From: Sphaerisporangium sp. TRM90804
GTDB lineage: Bacteria > Actinomycetota > Actinomycetes > Streptosporangiales > Streptosporangiaceae
Direction: 5' to 3'
Assembly: GCF_029846175.1 (NCBI RefSeq)
Contig: NZ_JARWAC010000017.1
Coordinates: 1-64,000, forward strand
Length of the DNA stretch: 64,000 nucleotides
Shown: piece by piece, positions 40,329-64,000 of the stretch
Position numbering within the stretch: the first letter of the stretch is position 1
How the letters are laid out: every line of letters begins with the position of its first letter
Notes under the pieces: model-generated
Told to the model about the DNA's origin: nothing
Seen by the model: the letters and a program-made list of their open reading frames with translations, nothing else
Databases searched by the model: none
Position numbers and translations under genes: made by a program

Positions 40329-41174
40329 TCAGCGGCCGTTCACGGTGGCGGGGAAGGCGATGCGGTGCTCCCCGGTGTAGACGTTCATGGAGCCGCCGCG
40401 CAGGAACCCGATGAGGGTGAGGCCGCACTCCGCGGCCAGCTCCGCGGCCAGGGACGAGGGCGCCGAGACGGCGGCCAGGGCCGGGATCCCCGCCATGACC
40501 GCCTTCTGCACCAGCTCGAACGAGGCCCGCCCGGAGACCATCAGGACGGTGGACGCCAGCGGGAGCTCGTCCCCGCGCACCGCCCAGCCGAGGATCTTGT
40601 CGACGGCGTTGTGCCGGCCCACGTCCTCCCGGACGCACAGGGCCTCGCCCTCGGGTGTGAACAGGCCGGCGGCGTGCAGGCCGCCGGTGCGGTCGAAGAC
40701 GCGCTGGGCCGAGCGCAGGCGGTCCGGGAGCGCGCCGATCACCTCCGAGTCCAGGCGCAAGGGGTCGCCGGCCACCTCCCAGCGGGCGACCGTGCGCACC
40801 GCCTCCAGCGACGCCTTGCCGCACACGCCGCAGGAGGAGGTGGTGTAGAAGTTGCGCTCCAGCGAGGCCGCCGGCGCGGTCACGCCCGGACCGAGGCGGA
40901 CGTCCAGCACGTTGTAGGTGTTGAGGCCGTCGGCGGTGGCGCCCGCGCAGTAGCGGATCGACCCGATGTCGGCGGCCGAGCCGACGGCACCCTCGCTGAC
41001 GAGGAAGCCGGCGGCCAGGTCGAAGTCGTCGCCCGGCGTGCGCATGGTGACGGTCAGCGGGCGGCCGTCGAGGCGGATCTCCAGCGGCTCCTCGGCGGCC
41101 AGGACGTCGACCCGCCGCGACAGCGCGGCGTCGCGCAGCCGCAGGATCGGGCGCCGGACGGTGACCCGGCTCAC
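40329..41174 (-). CDS. fdhD: Formate dehydrogenase accessory sulfurtransferase FdhD
   Basis: Carries sulfur from a cysteine desulfurase to the bis-MGD molybdenum cofactor, needed for active formate dehydrogenase. It has 281 residues. The active cysteines are in SSCGVCG near residues 118-124. [12 protein letters not shown] and [15 protein letters not shown] are diagnostic. GTG 41174 overlaps the stop of the preceding Fe-S subunit gene (4 bases). Its presence supports a real molybdenum formate dehydrogenase upstream. Confidence 0.96.
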
Positions 41175-42220
41175 GTGCCCGGCTCCCCGCGCGCCGGGTC
41201 GCCCGGCGGCGGCCCGGTGTCCCGGGCGGTGCCGGGACCGGACGGCGCGCGGCCCGGGGCGGCCGGGATGGTGGCGGTGACGCCCGAGGACGGCCCGGAG
41301 CCGGAGGAGGCGGCCGGGACCGAGGGTGAGCCGGCGGCCGAGCCGGCCCCGGCGGGTTCGGGCAGGGCCACGTTCTGGACGTGCTGGTAGCCGAAGCGGC
41401 CCTTGATGCACAGGTTCCCGTGCGTCACCGGGTTGTCGTGCGGGGAGCCGACCTTGACGATCCGGTTGTCCTGCACGTGCAGGGTCAGGTTGCAGCCGAC
41501 CCCGCAGTAGCTGCAGATCGTGGTCGTCTGGGTCTGCCGCAACTCGTCCCAGGAGCCCGCGGCGCGCATGTCGTACTCGGTCTTGAACGACAGCGCCCCG
41601 GTGGGGCACACCTCGACGCAGTTGCCGCAGTAGACGCACGCCGAGTCGGTCAGCGGGGCGTCGAACTCGGTGGAGATCACCGAGTCGAACCCGCGGCCCG
41701 CCACGGCGATGGCGAAGCTGTTCTGCCACTGCTCGCCGCAGGCGTCCACGCACTTGTAGCACAGGATGCACTTGTCGTAGTCGCGCACGTAGAGGTCGTT
41801 GTCCACCTTCACCGGCTGGTCGACGCGGGCCGCGTCCTCGCCGAAGCGGCCGGGGCGGGCGTCGTACTCCTCCAGCCACGCGGCGGCGCCCGGGGTGGTG
41901 GACAGGTCGACCGACGAGGCGAGCAGCTCCAGCACGACCTTGCGGCTGTGCCGGGCCCGCTCGGTGGCGGTGCCGACGACCATGCCGGCCTCCGCCTTGC
42001 GCGAGCAGGCCGGGACGAGCGTCCGCGAGCCCTCGACCTCCACCACGCACACCCGGCAGGCGTTCTTGGGGGTGAGCGTGTCGCCGTAGCACAGGGTGGG
42101 GATGTCCTGGCCGGCGCCGCCGCAGGCGTCCAGGATGGTGGCCCCCTCGGGCACCCGGACGGGCTCGCCGTCCACGGTCAGCTCGATCAGGCGCCGGGGC
42201 GGTGACAGGGGAACGGTCAT
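41171..42220 (-). CDS. Separate Fe-S subunit of formate dehydrogenase (N-terminal part of the alpha chain)
   Basis: A 349-residue protein equal to the electron-transfer half of FdsA/NuoG-type alpha subunits. Cys 44, 55, 58, 72 form a [2Fe-2S] site. Cys 151-154-157-161 and 195-198-201-205 are two [4Fe-4S] ferredoxin sites. CSYCGVGC (236-243) with Cys 271 is the [4Fe-4S] site that normally sits next to molybdenum in the same chain. The His-Cys3 cluster motif found in NuoG and FdsA is absent (no Cys between 73 and 150). The tail 285-349 is Pro/Ala/Gly-rich. It overlaps genes on both sides by 4 bases. Confidence 0.85.
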
Positions 42221-62340: not shown

Positions 62341-64000
62341 AGCGGATCCCCTGCATGGAGGCGGCCGTCGCCGTCATGGAGTCCGAGGGCGTCGACACCG
62401 TCTTCGGCATCCCGGGCGCGGCGATCCTGCCGCTGTACGCCGCCATGCGCACCAGCTCGATCCGGCACATCACCGTGCGGCACGAGGAGGGCGGCACCCA
62501 CGCCGCCGACGGATGGGCCCGGGTCACCGGCAACGTCGGCGTCTCCATCGGCACCTCGGGCCCGGCCGGCACCAACATGATCACCGGGCTGTACACCGCC
62601 ATGGCCGACTCCGTCCCCATCGTGTGCCTCACCGGGCAGGCCGCGCGGAACAAGCTGCACCAGGAGTCCTTCCAGGCGGTCGACATCGTGGAGATCGCCA
62701 AGCCGGTCACCAAGTGGGCCGTCCAGCTCAAGGAGCCCGCGCAGGCGCCCTGGGTGTTCCGCGAGGCGTTCCGCGTCGCCCGCTCCGGACGCCCCGGGCC
62801 GGTGCTCATCGACCTGCCCATCGACGTGCAGCGCGGCACCTGCCTGTACGACCCGGAGCTGGACGAGCCGTTCCCCGTGGACGTGCCCGAGCCGACGGCC
62901 GGGTCCGTGCGGGCGGCCGTCGACCTGCTGGCCGGCGCCCGGCGCCCGATCATCCTGGCCGGCGGCGGCGTCGTCATCGCGGACGCCGCGGCCGAGCTGC
63001 GGGCGCTGGCCGAGCACATGCGGATCCCCGTGCAGGTCACGCTCATGGGCAAGGGCGCCTTCCCCGAGGACCACCCCCTGTTCGCCGGCATGGCCGGCAT
63101 CCAGACCCAGACGCGGTGGGGCAACGCCGCGTTCCTGGAGAGCGACCTGGTGCTCGCGGTCGGCGCGCGGTTCGGCGACCGGCACACCGGCGACCTGGAG
63201 ACCTACCGGCGCGGGCGCAGGTTCGTCCACGTCGACATCGAGCCCACCCAGATCGGGCGGGTCTTCGAGCCCGAGCTCGGCGTGGTCGGGCACGCCCGGC
63301 CCGTGCTCGCCGCGATGACCGAGGAGGCGCGCCGCCGCACCGGGCGGCGTGAGCCGGGCGACTGGACCCGTCGCGTCGGGGAGCTGCGCGGCACGCTGCC
63401 CCGGCGCGACGACTTCGACGACGTGCCGATCAAGCCGCCCCGGGTGTTCAGGGAGATCAACGACTTCTTCCCCCGGGACACCACGTTCGTCACCGCCATC
63501 GGGCTCTACCAGATCTGGTCGGGCCAGTTCCAGAAGACCTTCCTGCCCCGGCGCTACCTGGTCTGCGGCCAGGCCGGCCCGCTCGGCTGGGAGGTGCCGG
63601 CGGCGATCGGCGTCAAGTGCGCCCACCCGGAACGGCAGGTCGTCGCCGTCGTCGGCGACTACTCCTTCCAGTTCCTGATGGAGGAGATCGCGGTGGCCGC
63701 CCAGTACCGCATCCCGTTCGTCATCGTCATGGTGAACAACGAGTACCTGGGGCTGATCCGGCAGGCCGAGATCCCCTACGACATGAACTACGCGGTCGAC
63801 CTGCACTACGGCGAGGGCGGCATCGACCACGTCAAGCTCATGGAGGCCTTCGGCTGCCCCGCCAGGAAGGTGGAGCTGCCCGGCGACATCCGCGGCGCCC
63901 TGGAGTGGGCCACCGCCGAGTCCGAGCGCCAGAGGCTTCCCGTGCTGGTCGAGGTCATGGTCGAACGGGAGGCCAACGCCGCGATGGGGCCCTCCCTCGA
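62337..64000 (+). CDS. gcl: Glyoxylate carboligase-like ThDP enzyme (3' end outside the window)
   Basis: Joins two glyoxylates into tartronate semialdehyde with loss of CO2. The first 554 codons are visible; full length is near 590. Gcl-type features: FGIPGAAILPLYAAM, GTSGPAGTNMITGLYTAMAD, FQAVDIVEIAKPVTK, DIEPTQIGRV, NCGQAGPLGW-like CGQAGPLGWEV. Unusually, the position of Val51 in the E. coli enzyme is Glu50 here (VRHEEGG), the canonical ThDP-activating glutamate. The ATG overlaps the glxR stop. The end of the gene is not seen. Confidence 0.85.
   Translation, partial: MKRIPCMEAAVAVMESEGVDTVFGIPGAAILPLYAAMRTSSIRHITVRHEEGGTHAADGWARVTGNVGVSIGTSGPAGTNMITGLYTAMADSVPIVCLTGQAARNKLHQESFQAVDIVEIAKPVTKWAVQLKEPAQAPWVFREAFRVARSGRPGPVLIDLPIDVQRGTCLYDPELDEPFPVDVPEPTAGSVRAAVDLLAGARRPIILAGGGVVIADAAAELRALAEHMRIPVQVTLMGKGAFPEDHPLFAGMAGIQTQTRWGNAAFLESDLVLAVGARFGDRHTGDLETYRRGRRFVHVDIEPTQIGRVFEPELGVVGHARPVLAAMTEEARRRTGRREPGDWTRRVGELRGTLPRRDDFDDVPIKPPRVFREINDFFPRDTTFVTAIGLYQIWSGQFQKTFLPRRYLVCGQAGPLGWEVPAAIGVKCAHPERQVVAVVGDYSFQFLMEEIAVAAQYRIPFVIVMVNNEYLGLIRQAEIPYDMNYAVDLHYGEGGIDHVKLMEAFGCPARKVELPGDIRGALEWATAESERQRLPVLVEVMVEREANAAMGPSL

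What the first reader, a model, noticed from the sequence alone, without database searches (positions are those of the whole stretch)
40329..64000. An integrated oxalate / formate / glyoxylate catabolic island
Seen: fdhD, a three-gene formate dehydrogenase, a KPR reductase, an oxc-like gene, frc, an acyl-CoA synthetase, an NRAMP-like carrier, a 4-TM protein, TerC, a GntR regulator, an OFA carrier, a SucCD paralogue, hyi, glxR and gcl in one stretch. Known: Frc and Oxc are the core of oxalate breakdown; FDH removes the formate; Gcl-Hyi-GlxR make glycerate from glyoxylate. Inferred: oxalate gives both energy (NADH) and carbon (glycerate). The combination of both branches plus dedicated transport in one regulon is unusually complete. 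A link from oxalyl-CoA to glyoxylate (an oxalyl-CoA reductase) is not seen in the window, so glyoxylate may come from elsewhere or from a gene past 64 kb.
Basis: partly seen in the sequence, partly recalled or inferred. Interest (0 to 1): 0.85.

Follow-up and report, generated by a model that had tools for sequence, protein, structure and literature searches.

The report
Actinomycete oxalate-degradation gene regulon
This stretch of a soil actinomycete's DNA carries a jointly controlled set of genes for living on oxalate; the pathway type is known, but one key enzyme and probably one transporter are unusual stand-ins for the textbook parts.

Summary
Corrected: the "missing" oxalyl-CoA reductase is most likely the KPR gene it listed itself; knockouts assign this step to KPR-family ApbA2 in Cupriavidus necator (PMC7486775, passages). 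KPR orthologues (at least 66% identical) occur in 21 of 25 sampled class genomes with true frc and 0 of 271 without it. A palindrome, CATACNGNATNCNGTATG, precedes oxc, KPR, fdhA, gntR and ofa/sucC; relatives hold 329 sites in 69 of 80 loci against about 13 in shuffles, so one GntR regulon is likely. The pathway type is known. Two parts are unusual. (1) The "oxc" fails the OXC model and lacks four of its active-site residues, yet three clusters without it carry canonical OXC nearby: probably a second, non-orthologous OXC. (2) In 73 of 75 readable loci the slot after acs holds either an NRAMP-like permease (52, each with an orphan 4-TM gene) or an OFA-like carrier (21). The NRAMP-like protein lacks the DPGN/MPH metal signature, so it may carry oxalate. 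Nothing here is biochemically shown.

The parts
40329..41174 (-). fdhD, formate dehydrogenase accessory sulfurtransferase (GTG start)
   Evidence: NF001943 386 bits, cut-off 269; start checked
41171..42220 (-). FDH iron-sulphur subunit (NuoG-like N-terminus plus the Fe4S domain that normally starts FdhA)
   Evidence: sequence read directly: Cys motifs including CSYCGVGC...NLCIKG; homologue at 60% or more in 20 of 28 related loci with fdhA
42217..44310 (-). FDH NuoE-NuoF fusion (NAD(P)-reducing diaphorase)
   Evidence: PF01512, PF01257, PF10589
44317..46245 (-). FDH molybdopterin catalytic subunit without its Fe4S domain; Cys-His at the presumed active site
   Evidence: TIGR01591 645 bits (cut-off 666, so just below), aligned from profile position 45; sequence; active-site assignment recalled
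46263..46287 (.). predicted GntR operator upstream of fdhA
   Evidence: 10 and 11 of 14 positions in two registers
46293..47282 (-). KPR/PanE-family reductase, candidate oxalyl-CoA reductase
   Evidence: PF02558, PF08546, NF005089 442 bits cut-off 223; co-occurrence with frc; alignment
47312..47329 (.). predicted GntR operator upstream of KPR
   Evidence: 13 of 14 positions
47489..47506 (.). predicted GntR operator upstream of oxc
   Evidence: 14 of 14 positions
47538..49238 (+). divergent TPP enzyme, candidate non-orthologous oxalyl-CoA decarboxylase
49250..50476 (+). frc, formyl-CoA:oxalate CoA-transferase
   Evidence: TIGR03253 638 bits, cut-off 504; closest solved structure E. coli YfdW
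50476..52611 (+). ADP-forming acyl-CoA synthetase (ATP-grasp plus CoA-binding domains)
   Evidence: found in 79 of 80 loci
52682..54181 (+). NRAMP-related permease without the metal signature; candidate oxalate carrier
   Evidence: NF037982 462 bits, cut-off 50; PF01566 17.3 bits, below cut-off 29.8; fold match to Nramp; GMGE at the DPGN site; neither DPGN nor MPH in any of 23 orthologues
54181..54717 (+). small 4-TM membrane protein of unknown family, predicted partner of the permease
   Evidence: no Pfam match at E 5; present in 52 of 52 nramp loci; confident model, no PDB fold match under E 0.001
54717..55715 (+). TerC/Alx-family membrane protein
   Evidence: TIGR03718 380 bits, cut-off 246; in 48 of 52 nramp loci
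56172..56915 (-). GntR/FCD regulator, predicted regulator of the cluster
   Evidence: PF00392, PF07729
56990..57014 (.). predicted operator upstream of gntR
   Evidence: 12 and 11 of 14 positions in two registers
57035..58330 (-). MFS carrier distantly OFA-like, with the OxlT Arg272 and Lys355 positions conserved
58321..58345 (.). predicted operator overlapping the ofa start, between ofa and sucC
   Evidence: 11 of 14 in two registers
58381..58405 (.). predicted operator in the ofa/sucC intergenic region
   Evidence: 11 and 12 of 14 in two registers
58428..59591 (+). SucC-like CoA ligase beta subunit, candidate oxalyl-CoA synthetase
   Evidence: NF001913 464 bits, cut-off 370; the substrate is inference
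59704..60600 (+). SucD-like CoA ligase alpha subunit
   Evidence: NF004230 439 bits, cut-off 336
60597..61412 (+). hyi-like isomerase
   Evidence: TIGR03234 285 bits, below cut-off 353
61459..62340 (+). glxR, tartronate semialdehyde reductase
   Evidence: TIGR01505 349.5 bits, cut-off 340.75
62337..64000 (+). gcl, glyoxylate carboligase (the gene ends at contig position 64061, outside the window; an aldehyde dehydrogenase follows at 64072-65613)
   Evidence: NF008431 866 bits, cut-off 791; TIGR01504 687 against 711, just below

Best explanation
A GntR-controlled oxalate-utilisation regulon. Oxalate enters through the NRAMP-like/4-TM permease and/or the OFA-like carrier. Frc moves CoA from formyl-CoA to oxalate. 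The divergent TPP enzyme decarboxylates oxalyl-CoA to formyl-CoA and CO2. The formate that Frc releases is oxidised by the three-gene NAD(P)-linked FDH for energy. In parallel the KPR-family enzyme reduces oxalyl-CoA to glyoxylate, Gcl joins two glyoxylates to tartronate semialdehyde, and GlxR (with Hyi) yields glycerate, which a glycerate kinase elsewhere in the genome can phosphorylate. Each oxalyl-CoA that is reduced leaves the Frc cycle without returning a CoA thioester, so an ATP-dependent ligase is needed; SucCD and/or the ADP-forming Acs are the candidates. Shown here by computation: gene identities, conserved linkage, shared operator, co-occurrence of KPR with frc, clusters in which canonical OXC is present where the divergent one is absent. 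Inferred: all enzyme activities, the carrier's substrate, the role of SucCD/Acs, and control by this GntR protein.
For: Frc is over its equivalog cut-off and nearest in the PDB to YfdW and then the Oxalobacter enzyme. KPR orthologues occur in 21 of 25 frc-positive and 0 of 271 frc-negative class genomes at E 1e-40 (Fisher p about 1.7e-28, not corrected for phylogeny). In C. necator, deleting KPR-family apbA2 slows growth on oxalate (doubling time 10 h against 6.5 h) much as deleting gcl-hyi-tsr does (13 h), and deleting frc-oxc abolishes it (PMC7486775, passages). Proteobacterial plasmids hold overlapping subsets of oxc (divergent or canonical), frc, KPR, sucCD, pntAB and gcl in one region. 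Operator: 329 matches of at least 11 of 14 in 80 loci against 13.4 per dinucleotide-shuffled set, 95 against 0 at 13 or more; 292 of the 329 lie within 400 bases upstream (or 80 inside) of a cluster gene, at oxc in 67 loci, KPR 60, sucC 40, gntR 33, ofa 30, fdhA 17; all nine matches of 11 or more in C10:1-100000 lie at this cluster. Neighbours of frc in the 25 class loci: 20 divergent OXC, 4 canonical, 1 none within 1.5 kb. In three clusters where no divergent oxc is found in the fetched stretch (G182, G478, Cupriavidus campinensis) a canonical OXC is. Own genome: no canonical OXC over cut-off, a glycerate kinase present. OxlT Arg272 and Lys355 positions are kept in the OFA-like carrier.
Against: The OXC-like protein is below the OXC cut-off and has Leu, Gln, Asn and no Ser where canonical OXC has Tyr120, Glu121, Tyr483 and Ser553, and it groups with HACL/IlvG-like enzymes rather than OXC. 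It does keep Glu56, and 2 of 9 canonical sequences also have Gln at position 121. KPR is the only KPR-family protein over cut-off in the genome, so a pantothenate role is not formally excluded; 4 of 25 frc-positive genomes lack it, and five of 12 genomes checked by handle have only weak KPR homologues; in Methylobacterium bullatum the KPR lies far from oxc. 11 of 80 loci, mostly Streptomyces, have no operator match, so the same regulator need not serve all lineages. gcl, hyi and glxR are linked to oxc in few loci. The 80 loci were chosen for similarity to the divergent oxc and are related, so counts among them are not independent. No expression or activity data exist.
Confidence: 0.82

Rival explanations
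1. The TPP enzyme is a 2-hydroxyacyl-CoA lyase: an unknown 2-hydroxy acid is activated by Frc or Acs, cleaved to formyl-CoA and a carbonyl compound, and formate is oxidised by FDH. The cluster would then not be for oxalate.
For: Best solved-structure match is 2-hydroxyacyl-CoA lyase; position 121 is Gln, as I recall for HACL; in an actinomycete a TPP lyase gene and a CoA-ligase gene form a cluster for 2-hydroxyisobutyrate with formic acid as product (PMC7176365, passages).
Against: Below the HACL model (352 against 600); Frc is a strong oxalate-type Frc; KPR, Gcl, GlxR and OFA-like carriers fit oxalate better than 2-hydroxy acids; canonical OXC is present in three clusters where this enzyme is absent.
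Confidence: 0.08
2. The cluster runs mainly the other way: glyoxylate from glycolate or purine breakdown is oxidised by KPR or the aldehyde dehydrogenase to oxalyl-CoA and on to formate and CO2.
For: C. necator uses this direction as a secondary route on glycolate (PMC7486775, passages); Gcl and an aldehyde dehydrogenase are in the operon.
Against: Candidate oxalate carriers and CoA ligases lie in the same cluster behind the same operator; in Azospirillum, Skermanella and one of two Phyllobacterium plasmids pntAB lies near the KPR, which suggests NADPH supply for reduction.
Confidence: 0.1
3. KPR is the housekeeping ketopantoate reductase, and the aldehyde dehydrogenase at 64072-65613 is the acylating oxalyl-CoA reductase.
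For: KPR is the only KPR-family protein over cut-off in this genome; the aldehyde dehydrogenase is enriched in frc-positive genomes (20 of 25 against 32 of 271) and adjoins sucCD in Streptomyces clusters without KPR nearby.
Against: No KPR orthologue in any of the 271 frc-negative class genomes at E 1e-40, apart from two 37% homologues, which a pantothenate enzyme would not show; it has the regulon's operator. The aldehyde dehydrogenase also occurs in 32 frc-negative genomes.
Confidence: 0.06
4. The NRAMP-like/4-TM/TerC set is a metal-handling module that deals with metal ions brought in or released with oxalate, and oxalate itself enters only through the OFA-like carrier.
For: TerC/Alx proteins are metal-linked (family description); 38 of 52 nramp loci also hold an OFA-like gene within the fetched flanks, on the same strand as nramp in four; B. 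subtilis YcsG, an NRAMP protein in a 5-oxoproline operon, raises cell manganese (PMC10448178, passages).
Against: The NRAMP-like protein and 22 orthologues lack DPGN and MPH and it fails PF01566 while the genome has two canonical Nramps elsewhere; it sits where other genomes have an OFA-like carrier after acs; PxpT, another NRAMP relative, is needed for growth of C. glutamicum on the carboxylate 5-oxoproline, though its authors do not exclude metal transport (PMC13274462, passages).
Confidence: 0.35

Closest known systems
Cupriavidus necator oxalate pathway (frc-oxc, apbA2, gcl-hyi-tsr, FDH; PMC7486775, passages seen)
   Same: Same set of steps: Frc/OXC/FDH for energy, a KPR-family oxalyl-CoA reductase, and the glycerate pathway for carbon.
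   Different: Here the decarboxylase belongs to another TPP clade, an ADP-forming Acs and NRAMP/4-TM/TerC genes are added, and one palindromic operator marks the promoters.
Methylobacterium extorquens oxalate assimilation with PanE2 (PMC8411744, passages seen; the primary paper is recalled only)
   Same: KPR-family oxalyl-CoA reductase; by recall also an oxalyl-CoA synthetase.
   Different: Glyoxylate goes to the serine cycle there (recalled); here Gcl/GlxR make glycerate.
Canonical oxalyl-CoA decarboxylase (TIGR03254)
   Same: TPP enzyme directly upstream of frc; Glu56 kept.
   Different: Score far below cut-off, four active-site residues absent, separate clade.
PxpT/YcsG NRAMP-family permeases of 5-oxoproline operons (PMC13274462, PMC10448178, passages seen)
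   Same: NRAMP relative inside an organic-acid catabolic operon; PxpT beside a GntR-type regulator.
   Different: Different presumed substrate; here a 4-TM gene and usually TerC follow. Sequence similarity to PxpT was not compared.
OxlT/OFA oxalate:formate antiporters (PMC10070484, passages seen)
   Same: Arg272 and Lys355 positions kept in the 57035-58330 carrier and in the OFA-like carriers of the acs slot that were aligned.
   Different: The 57035-58330 carrier is below the TIGR04259 and TIGR00890 cut-offs, and so is the one acs-slot carrier that was scanned.

Membership tests
Canonical oxalyl-CoA decarboxylase (TIGR03254) | curated score cut-off 739.4 bits | tested here: not met
   240.8 bits
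Canonical oxalyl-CoA decarboxylase (TIGR03254) | Tyr120, Glu121, Tyr483, Ser553 (named in PMC10192776, section read) | tested here: not met
   Leu, Gln, Asn and no Ser (Asn, in one Ala) in all 14 divergent sequences aligned with 9 canonical ones; Gln at 121 is also seen in 2 of the 9 canonical
Canonical oxalyl-CoA decarboxylase (TIGR03254) | Glu56 | tested here: met
   RHE motif aligned
Canonical oxalyl-CoA decarboxylase (TIGR03254) | falls in the canonical OXC clade | tested here: not met
   35-row tree: 9 canonical rows separate (100/100), divergent clade separate (100/100, 15 rows with G161's copy, which I had labelled tpp); the tool warned of long branches
Oxalyl-CoA decarboxylase in function | genomic partner of frc, alternating with canonical OXC | tested here: met
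   neighbour of frc in 20 of 25 class loci; three clusters without it in the fetched stretch carry canonical OXC. Whole genomes were not checked for both kinds in every case
Oxalyl-CoA decarboxylase in function | decarboxylates oxalyl-CoA | not testable with these tools
   needs enzyme assay
2-hydroxyacyl-CoA lyase (NF058623) | curated score cut-off 600 bits | tested here: not met
   352.1 bits
Formyl-CoA:oxalate CoA-transferase (TIGR03253) | curated score cut-off 504.2 bits | tested here: met
   637.9 bits
KPR-type oxalyl-CoA reductase (PanE2/ApbA2) | KPR family with its catalytic Lys and Glu | tested here: met
   the Lys/Glu assignment is recalled
KPR-type oxalyl-CoA reductase (PanE2/ApbA2) | tied to frc/oxc | tested here: met
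   21 of 25 frc-positive, 0 of 271 frc-negative class genomes
KPR-type oxalyl-CoA reductase (PanE2/ApbA2) | direct similarity to M. extorquens PanE2 or C. necator H16 ApbA2 | not tested
   those sequences were not fetched; 41-49% identity to KPRs of Cupriavidus, Azospirillum, Skermanella, Phyllobacterium and Methylobacterium bullatum plasmids
NRAMP metal transporter (PF01566) | gathering score 29.8 bits | tested here: not met
   17.3 bits; but NF037982, named Nramp family divalent metal transporter, is met: 462 against 50
NRAMP metal transporter (PF01566) | DPGN in TM1 and MPH in TM6 (motifs as read in E. coli MntH) | tested here: not met
   absent from 23 of 23 orthologues; GMGE at TM1; in TM6 the alignment is gapped and my pairing with AGPSG is by eye
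NRAMP/APC fold | fold match to solved Nramp structures | tested here: met
   top Foldseek hits are D. radiodurans Nramp, E about 1e-9; model mean pLDDT only 68.6
OFA/OxlT oxalate:formate antiporter (TIGR04259) | curated score cut-off 335 bits | tested here: not met
   69.6 bits
OFA/OxlT oxalate:formate antiporter (TIGR04259) | oxalate-binding Arg272 and Lys355 | tested here: met
   NGxxR and K positions aligned with plasmid OxlT
Glycerate pathway (Gcl, GlxR, Hyi) | curated cut-offs of Gcl, GlxR, Hyi | tested here: inconclusive
   Gcl 866 over 791 (NF008431) but 687 under 711 (TIGR01504); GlxR 349.5 over 340.75; Hyi 285 below 353

The most novel reading that the evidence does not exclude
Actinomycetes degrade oxalate with two parts that were each invented a second time: an oxalyl-CoA decarboxylase arisen independently from the HACL/IlvG side of the TPP enzymes, using different active-site residues, and an NRAMP-family permease that lost its metal site and, with an orphan 4-TM partner, carries oxalate in place of the OFA antiporter.
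Probability: 0.42. Interest if true: 0.78.

Novelty: new variant of a known kind. Interest (0 to 1): 0.6.

Why it matters
If right, surveys that define oxalate degraders by canonical OXC miss most frc-positive actinomycetes: 20 of 25 frc loci in the class sample had the divergent enzyme as neighbour, while in one published OXC survey Tyr483 was kept in every sequence that reached it (PMC10192776, section read), so this clade was not in its alignment. A TPP enzyme acting on oxalyl-CoA without Tyr120, Tyr483 or Ser553 would inform OXC mechanism and the engineering of formyl-CoA carboligases. The NRAMP-like/OFA exchange makes an open question testable: whether NRAMP relatives in organic-acid operons carry the acid (PxpT, PMC13274462) or manganese (YcsG, PMC10448178).

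Tried and rejected
Rejected: an oxalyl-CoA reductase past 64 kb as a necessity (KPR explains it; the next gene is an aldehyde dehydrogenase of unclear role, found in 20 of 25 frc-positive but also 32 of 271 frc-negative genomes). Rejected as unlikely: KPR as housekeeping PanE (kept as a rival at low odds). Rejected: the operator-like site at C25:36215; it lies inside a moaA-like coding region and looks like chance. 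Rejected: the ARAGORN 'tRNA' at 48096-48189 (no Rfam match at the gathering threshold, inside oxc).

Led nowhere: comparing the NRAMP-like alignment with canonical Nramps by hhalign gave only a weak local match, and phmmer and profile searches of the PDB gave no Nramp, so the residue comparison rests on MAFFT with bridging relatives and on fold search. The 4-TM protein has no fold match in the PDB under E 0.001. Contexts of the aldehyde dehydrogenase in four frc-negative genomes were not informative, except a sucD in two pieces beside it in one. Literature: no paper on a divergent actinobacterial OXC or an NRAMP oxalate carrier was recognised in the listings of searches; the library lacks most subscription papers, so this is not proof that none exists.

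Rows dropped: tblastn hits under per-gene identity thresholds or 60 aa; hits shorter than 50-80 aa; 5 of 80 loci had an unreadable acs slot (4 at a contig end, 1 without acs). In one search one row (L170) was labelled by mistake as 'tpp' although it is the divergent gene of G161. each drew 296 class genomes; the handles listed in both agree, but neither lists all 296 by name, so I take them as one sample.

Full report
Where it is. The window is bases 1-64000 of contig 10 of an 8.3-Mb genome, 72% GC. Its divergent oxc is closest to those of Acrocarpospora, Sphaerisporangium and Planotetraspora, so the organism is probably one of the Streptosporangiaceae.

What is there. The genes in the finding are confirmed; coordinates are in the parts list. 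Close spacing suggests operons: fdhA-nuoEF-FeS-fdhD (6 bases or less between genes, or overlaps, with the starts), oxc-frc-acs (11 and -1), nramp-4tm-terC (-1 each) and sucD-hyi-glxR-gcl-aldh (-4 to 46). The gene past the window, at 64072-65613, is an aldehyde dehydrogenase of no named subfamily.

One regulon. A palindrome, CATACNGNATNCNGTATG, taken from this window, lies upstream of fdhA, KPR, oxc and gntR and between ofa and sucC. In C10:1-100000 all nine matches of at least 11 of its 14 fixed positions lie at this cluster. In the 80 related loci there are 329 matches of 11 or more, 199 of 12 or more and 95 of 13 or more, against 13.4, 0.6 and 0 per dinucleotide-shuffled set (mean of 5 sets) and 26 in one single-base shuffle. 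Overlapping registers count separately. 292 of the 329 lie near the start of a cluster gene, at oxc in 67 loci, KPR 60, sucC 40, gntR 33, ofa 30, fdhA 17; a site between divergent genes counts for both. Eleven loci, mostly Streptomyces, have none. In the whole genome the 12-mer GTATRCAGTATG has its only two exact matches here, while matches with up to 2 mismatches are no more frequent than the reversed control (75 against 118). That the cluster's GntR/FCD protein binds these sites is inferred.

The missing step. In C. necator, ApbA2, located close to frc-oxc and 51% identical to the M. extorquens protein, is needed for normal growth on oxalate, to about the same extent as gcl-hyi-tsr, and loss of frc-oxc abolishes growth (PMC7486775, passages). 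PanE2 was used to convert oxalyl-CoA to glyoxylate in vitro (PMC8411744, passages). The window's KPR aligns over its length with KPRs near oxalate genes in Cupriavidus, Azospirillum and Phyllobacterium plasmids (41-48% identity). In an even sample of 296 class genomes frc over its cut-off occurs in 25 and a KPR orthologue of at least 66% identity in 21, all within those 25; of the 271 others none has one at E 1e-40, two having 37% homologues. One of the 21, G128, has KPR in two pieces. The frc-positive genomes without it are G074, G429, G423 and G246. Against: KPR is the only family member over cut-off in this genome, five of 12 genomes without KPR near oxc have only weak homologues elsewhere, and in Methylobacterium bullatum KPR and oxc lie far apart.

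The decarboxylase. The oxc-like protein scores 240.8 bits on TIGR03254 (cut-off 739.4), 352 on the HACL model (600) and 493 on an IlvG-like model (587): it meets none. Where canonical OXC has Tyr120, Glu121, Tyr483 and Ser553 it has Leu, Gln, Asn and Asn (Ala in one), in all 14 divergent sequences aligned; Glu56 is kept, and 2 of 9 canonical sequences also have Gln at 121. A published survey found Tyr483 in every OXC that reached that position (PMC10192776, section 10). A 35-row tree keeps the 9 canonical OXCs and the divergent clade apart, each 100/100, the latter with IlvG/HACL-like enzymes (97/94); the tool warned of long branches. Function is argued from context. Of 25 class frc loci, 20 have the divergent enzyme within 1.5 kb, 4 canonical OXC and 1 neither. 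Three clusters that keep KPR, sucCD and frc of the divergent type, with no divergent oxc in the fetched stretch, carry a canonical OXC: Streptomyces-like G182 (about 20 kb from that frc, beside FDH genes), G478, and Cupriavidus campinensis. C. metallidurans and Caballeronia M1242 have the divergent gene between sucC and frc. Canonical OXC is over cut-off in 7 of 296 phylum genomes and not in this one. I did not search every divergent-type genome for a canonical OXC, nor the three genomes outside the stretches for a divergent one.

The carriers. All 52 have the 4-TM gene and 48 terC. The exchange is not strict for the whole locus: 38 of the 52 also hold an OFA-like gene in the flanks, four on the nramp strand. 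The slot carriers are OFA-like at 32-39% identity to the window's carrier; the one scanned (L102, annotated OFA family) is itself below the OFA cut-offs. The NRAMP-like protein has the Nramp fold by Foldseek (E about 1e-9 to D. radiodurans Nramp) on a model of modest confidence (pLDDT 68.6). It meets the broad NF037982 model but fails PF01566 (17.3 against 29.8 bits), while the genome has two true Nramps elsewhere. MAFFT puts GMGE at the DPGN motif of TM1; TM6 has AFAGPSGM where MntH has the MPH region, a pairing made by eye because the alignment is gapped there. Neither motif occurs in 23 of 23 orthologues. In the class sample, orthologues of at least 79% occur in 10 genomes, all frc-positive. 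A precedent is PxpT, an NRAMP relative needed for growth of C. glutamicum on 5-oxoproline (PMC13274462, passages); against it, B. subtilis YcsG raised cell manganese (PMC10448178, passages). The 57035-58330 carrier is below OFA cut-offs but keeps the OxlT Arg272 and Lys355 positions. The 4-TM protein gives a confident model (pLDDT 94.8) with no PDB match under E 0.001.

CoA ligases. The Frc cycle conserves one CoA thioester per turn, so oxalyl-CoA drained by KPR must be replaced (pathway logic). SucCD beside oxc-frc also occurs in Azospirillum and Phyllobacterium, and Acs is found with frc in 79 of 80 loci. Which of them activates oxalate is inference.

Extent of the glycerate branch. Within flanks of at most 10 kb, hyi, glxR and gcl were seen in 3, 3 and 2 of 80 loci. 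In a Streptomyces plasmid sucC, sucD and the aldehyde dehydrogenase are contiguous without them. Their joining to the cluster is thus lineage-specific, though flank length hides some cases. A glycerate kinase is present elsewhere in this genome.

Verdict. A real, conserved oxalate cluster and probable regulon of a known pathway type, with a probable second kind of OXC and a possible NRAMP-type oxalate carrier. Novelty: new variant of a known kind. Interest 0.6.

Noticed in passing
window 41171-46245 (-): The formate dehydrogenase catalytic subunit is split: its N-terminal Fe4S domain is fused to a NuoG-like FeS subunit encoded downstream, after nuoEF. In 28 related loci (two of them with fragments only) my Cys pattern was not found in the open frame before fdhA. 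In G182 the two parts form one open frame of 904 residues.
   Followed up: partly
window 34868-40283: Upstream SDR-like (by eye), enolase-superfamily and NAD-epimerase genes that look like a separate sugar-acid pathway.
   Followed up: no
L157 (G452) 7659-9906: A frc-negative Streptomyces-like genome keeps the aldehyde dehydrogenase beside a sucD in two pieces, which looks like a decayed oxalate cluster.
   Followed up: no
contig 10, 95382-96419, and contigs 1 and 24: Three further class III CoA-transferases in the genome besides frc.
   Followed up: no
L145-L154: A wider NRAMP-related family (26-31% identical) with SGE at TM1 and mostly AFAGAGG in TM6, also without the metal motifs; 8 of the 10 fetched come from frc-negative genomes; substrate unknown.
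   Followed up: partly
window 48096-48189 (-): ARAGORN reports a tRNA of unknown type inside oxc; no Rfam match at the gathering threshold, probably false.
   Followed up: yes
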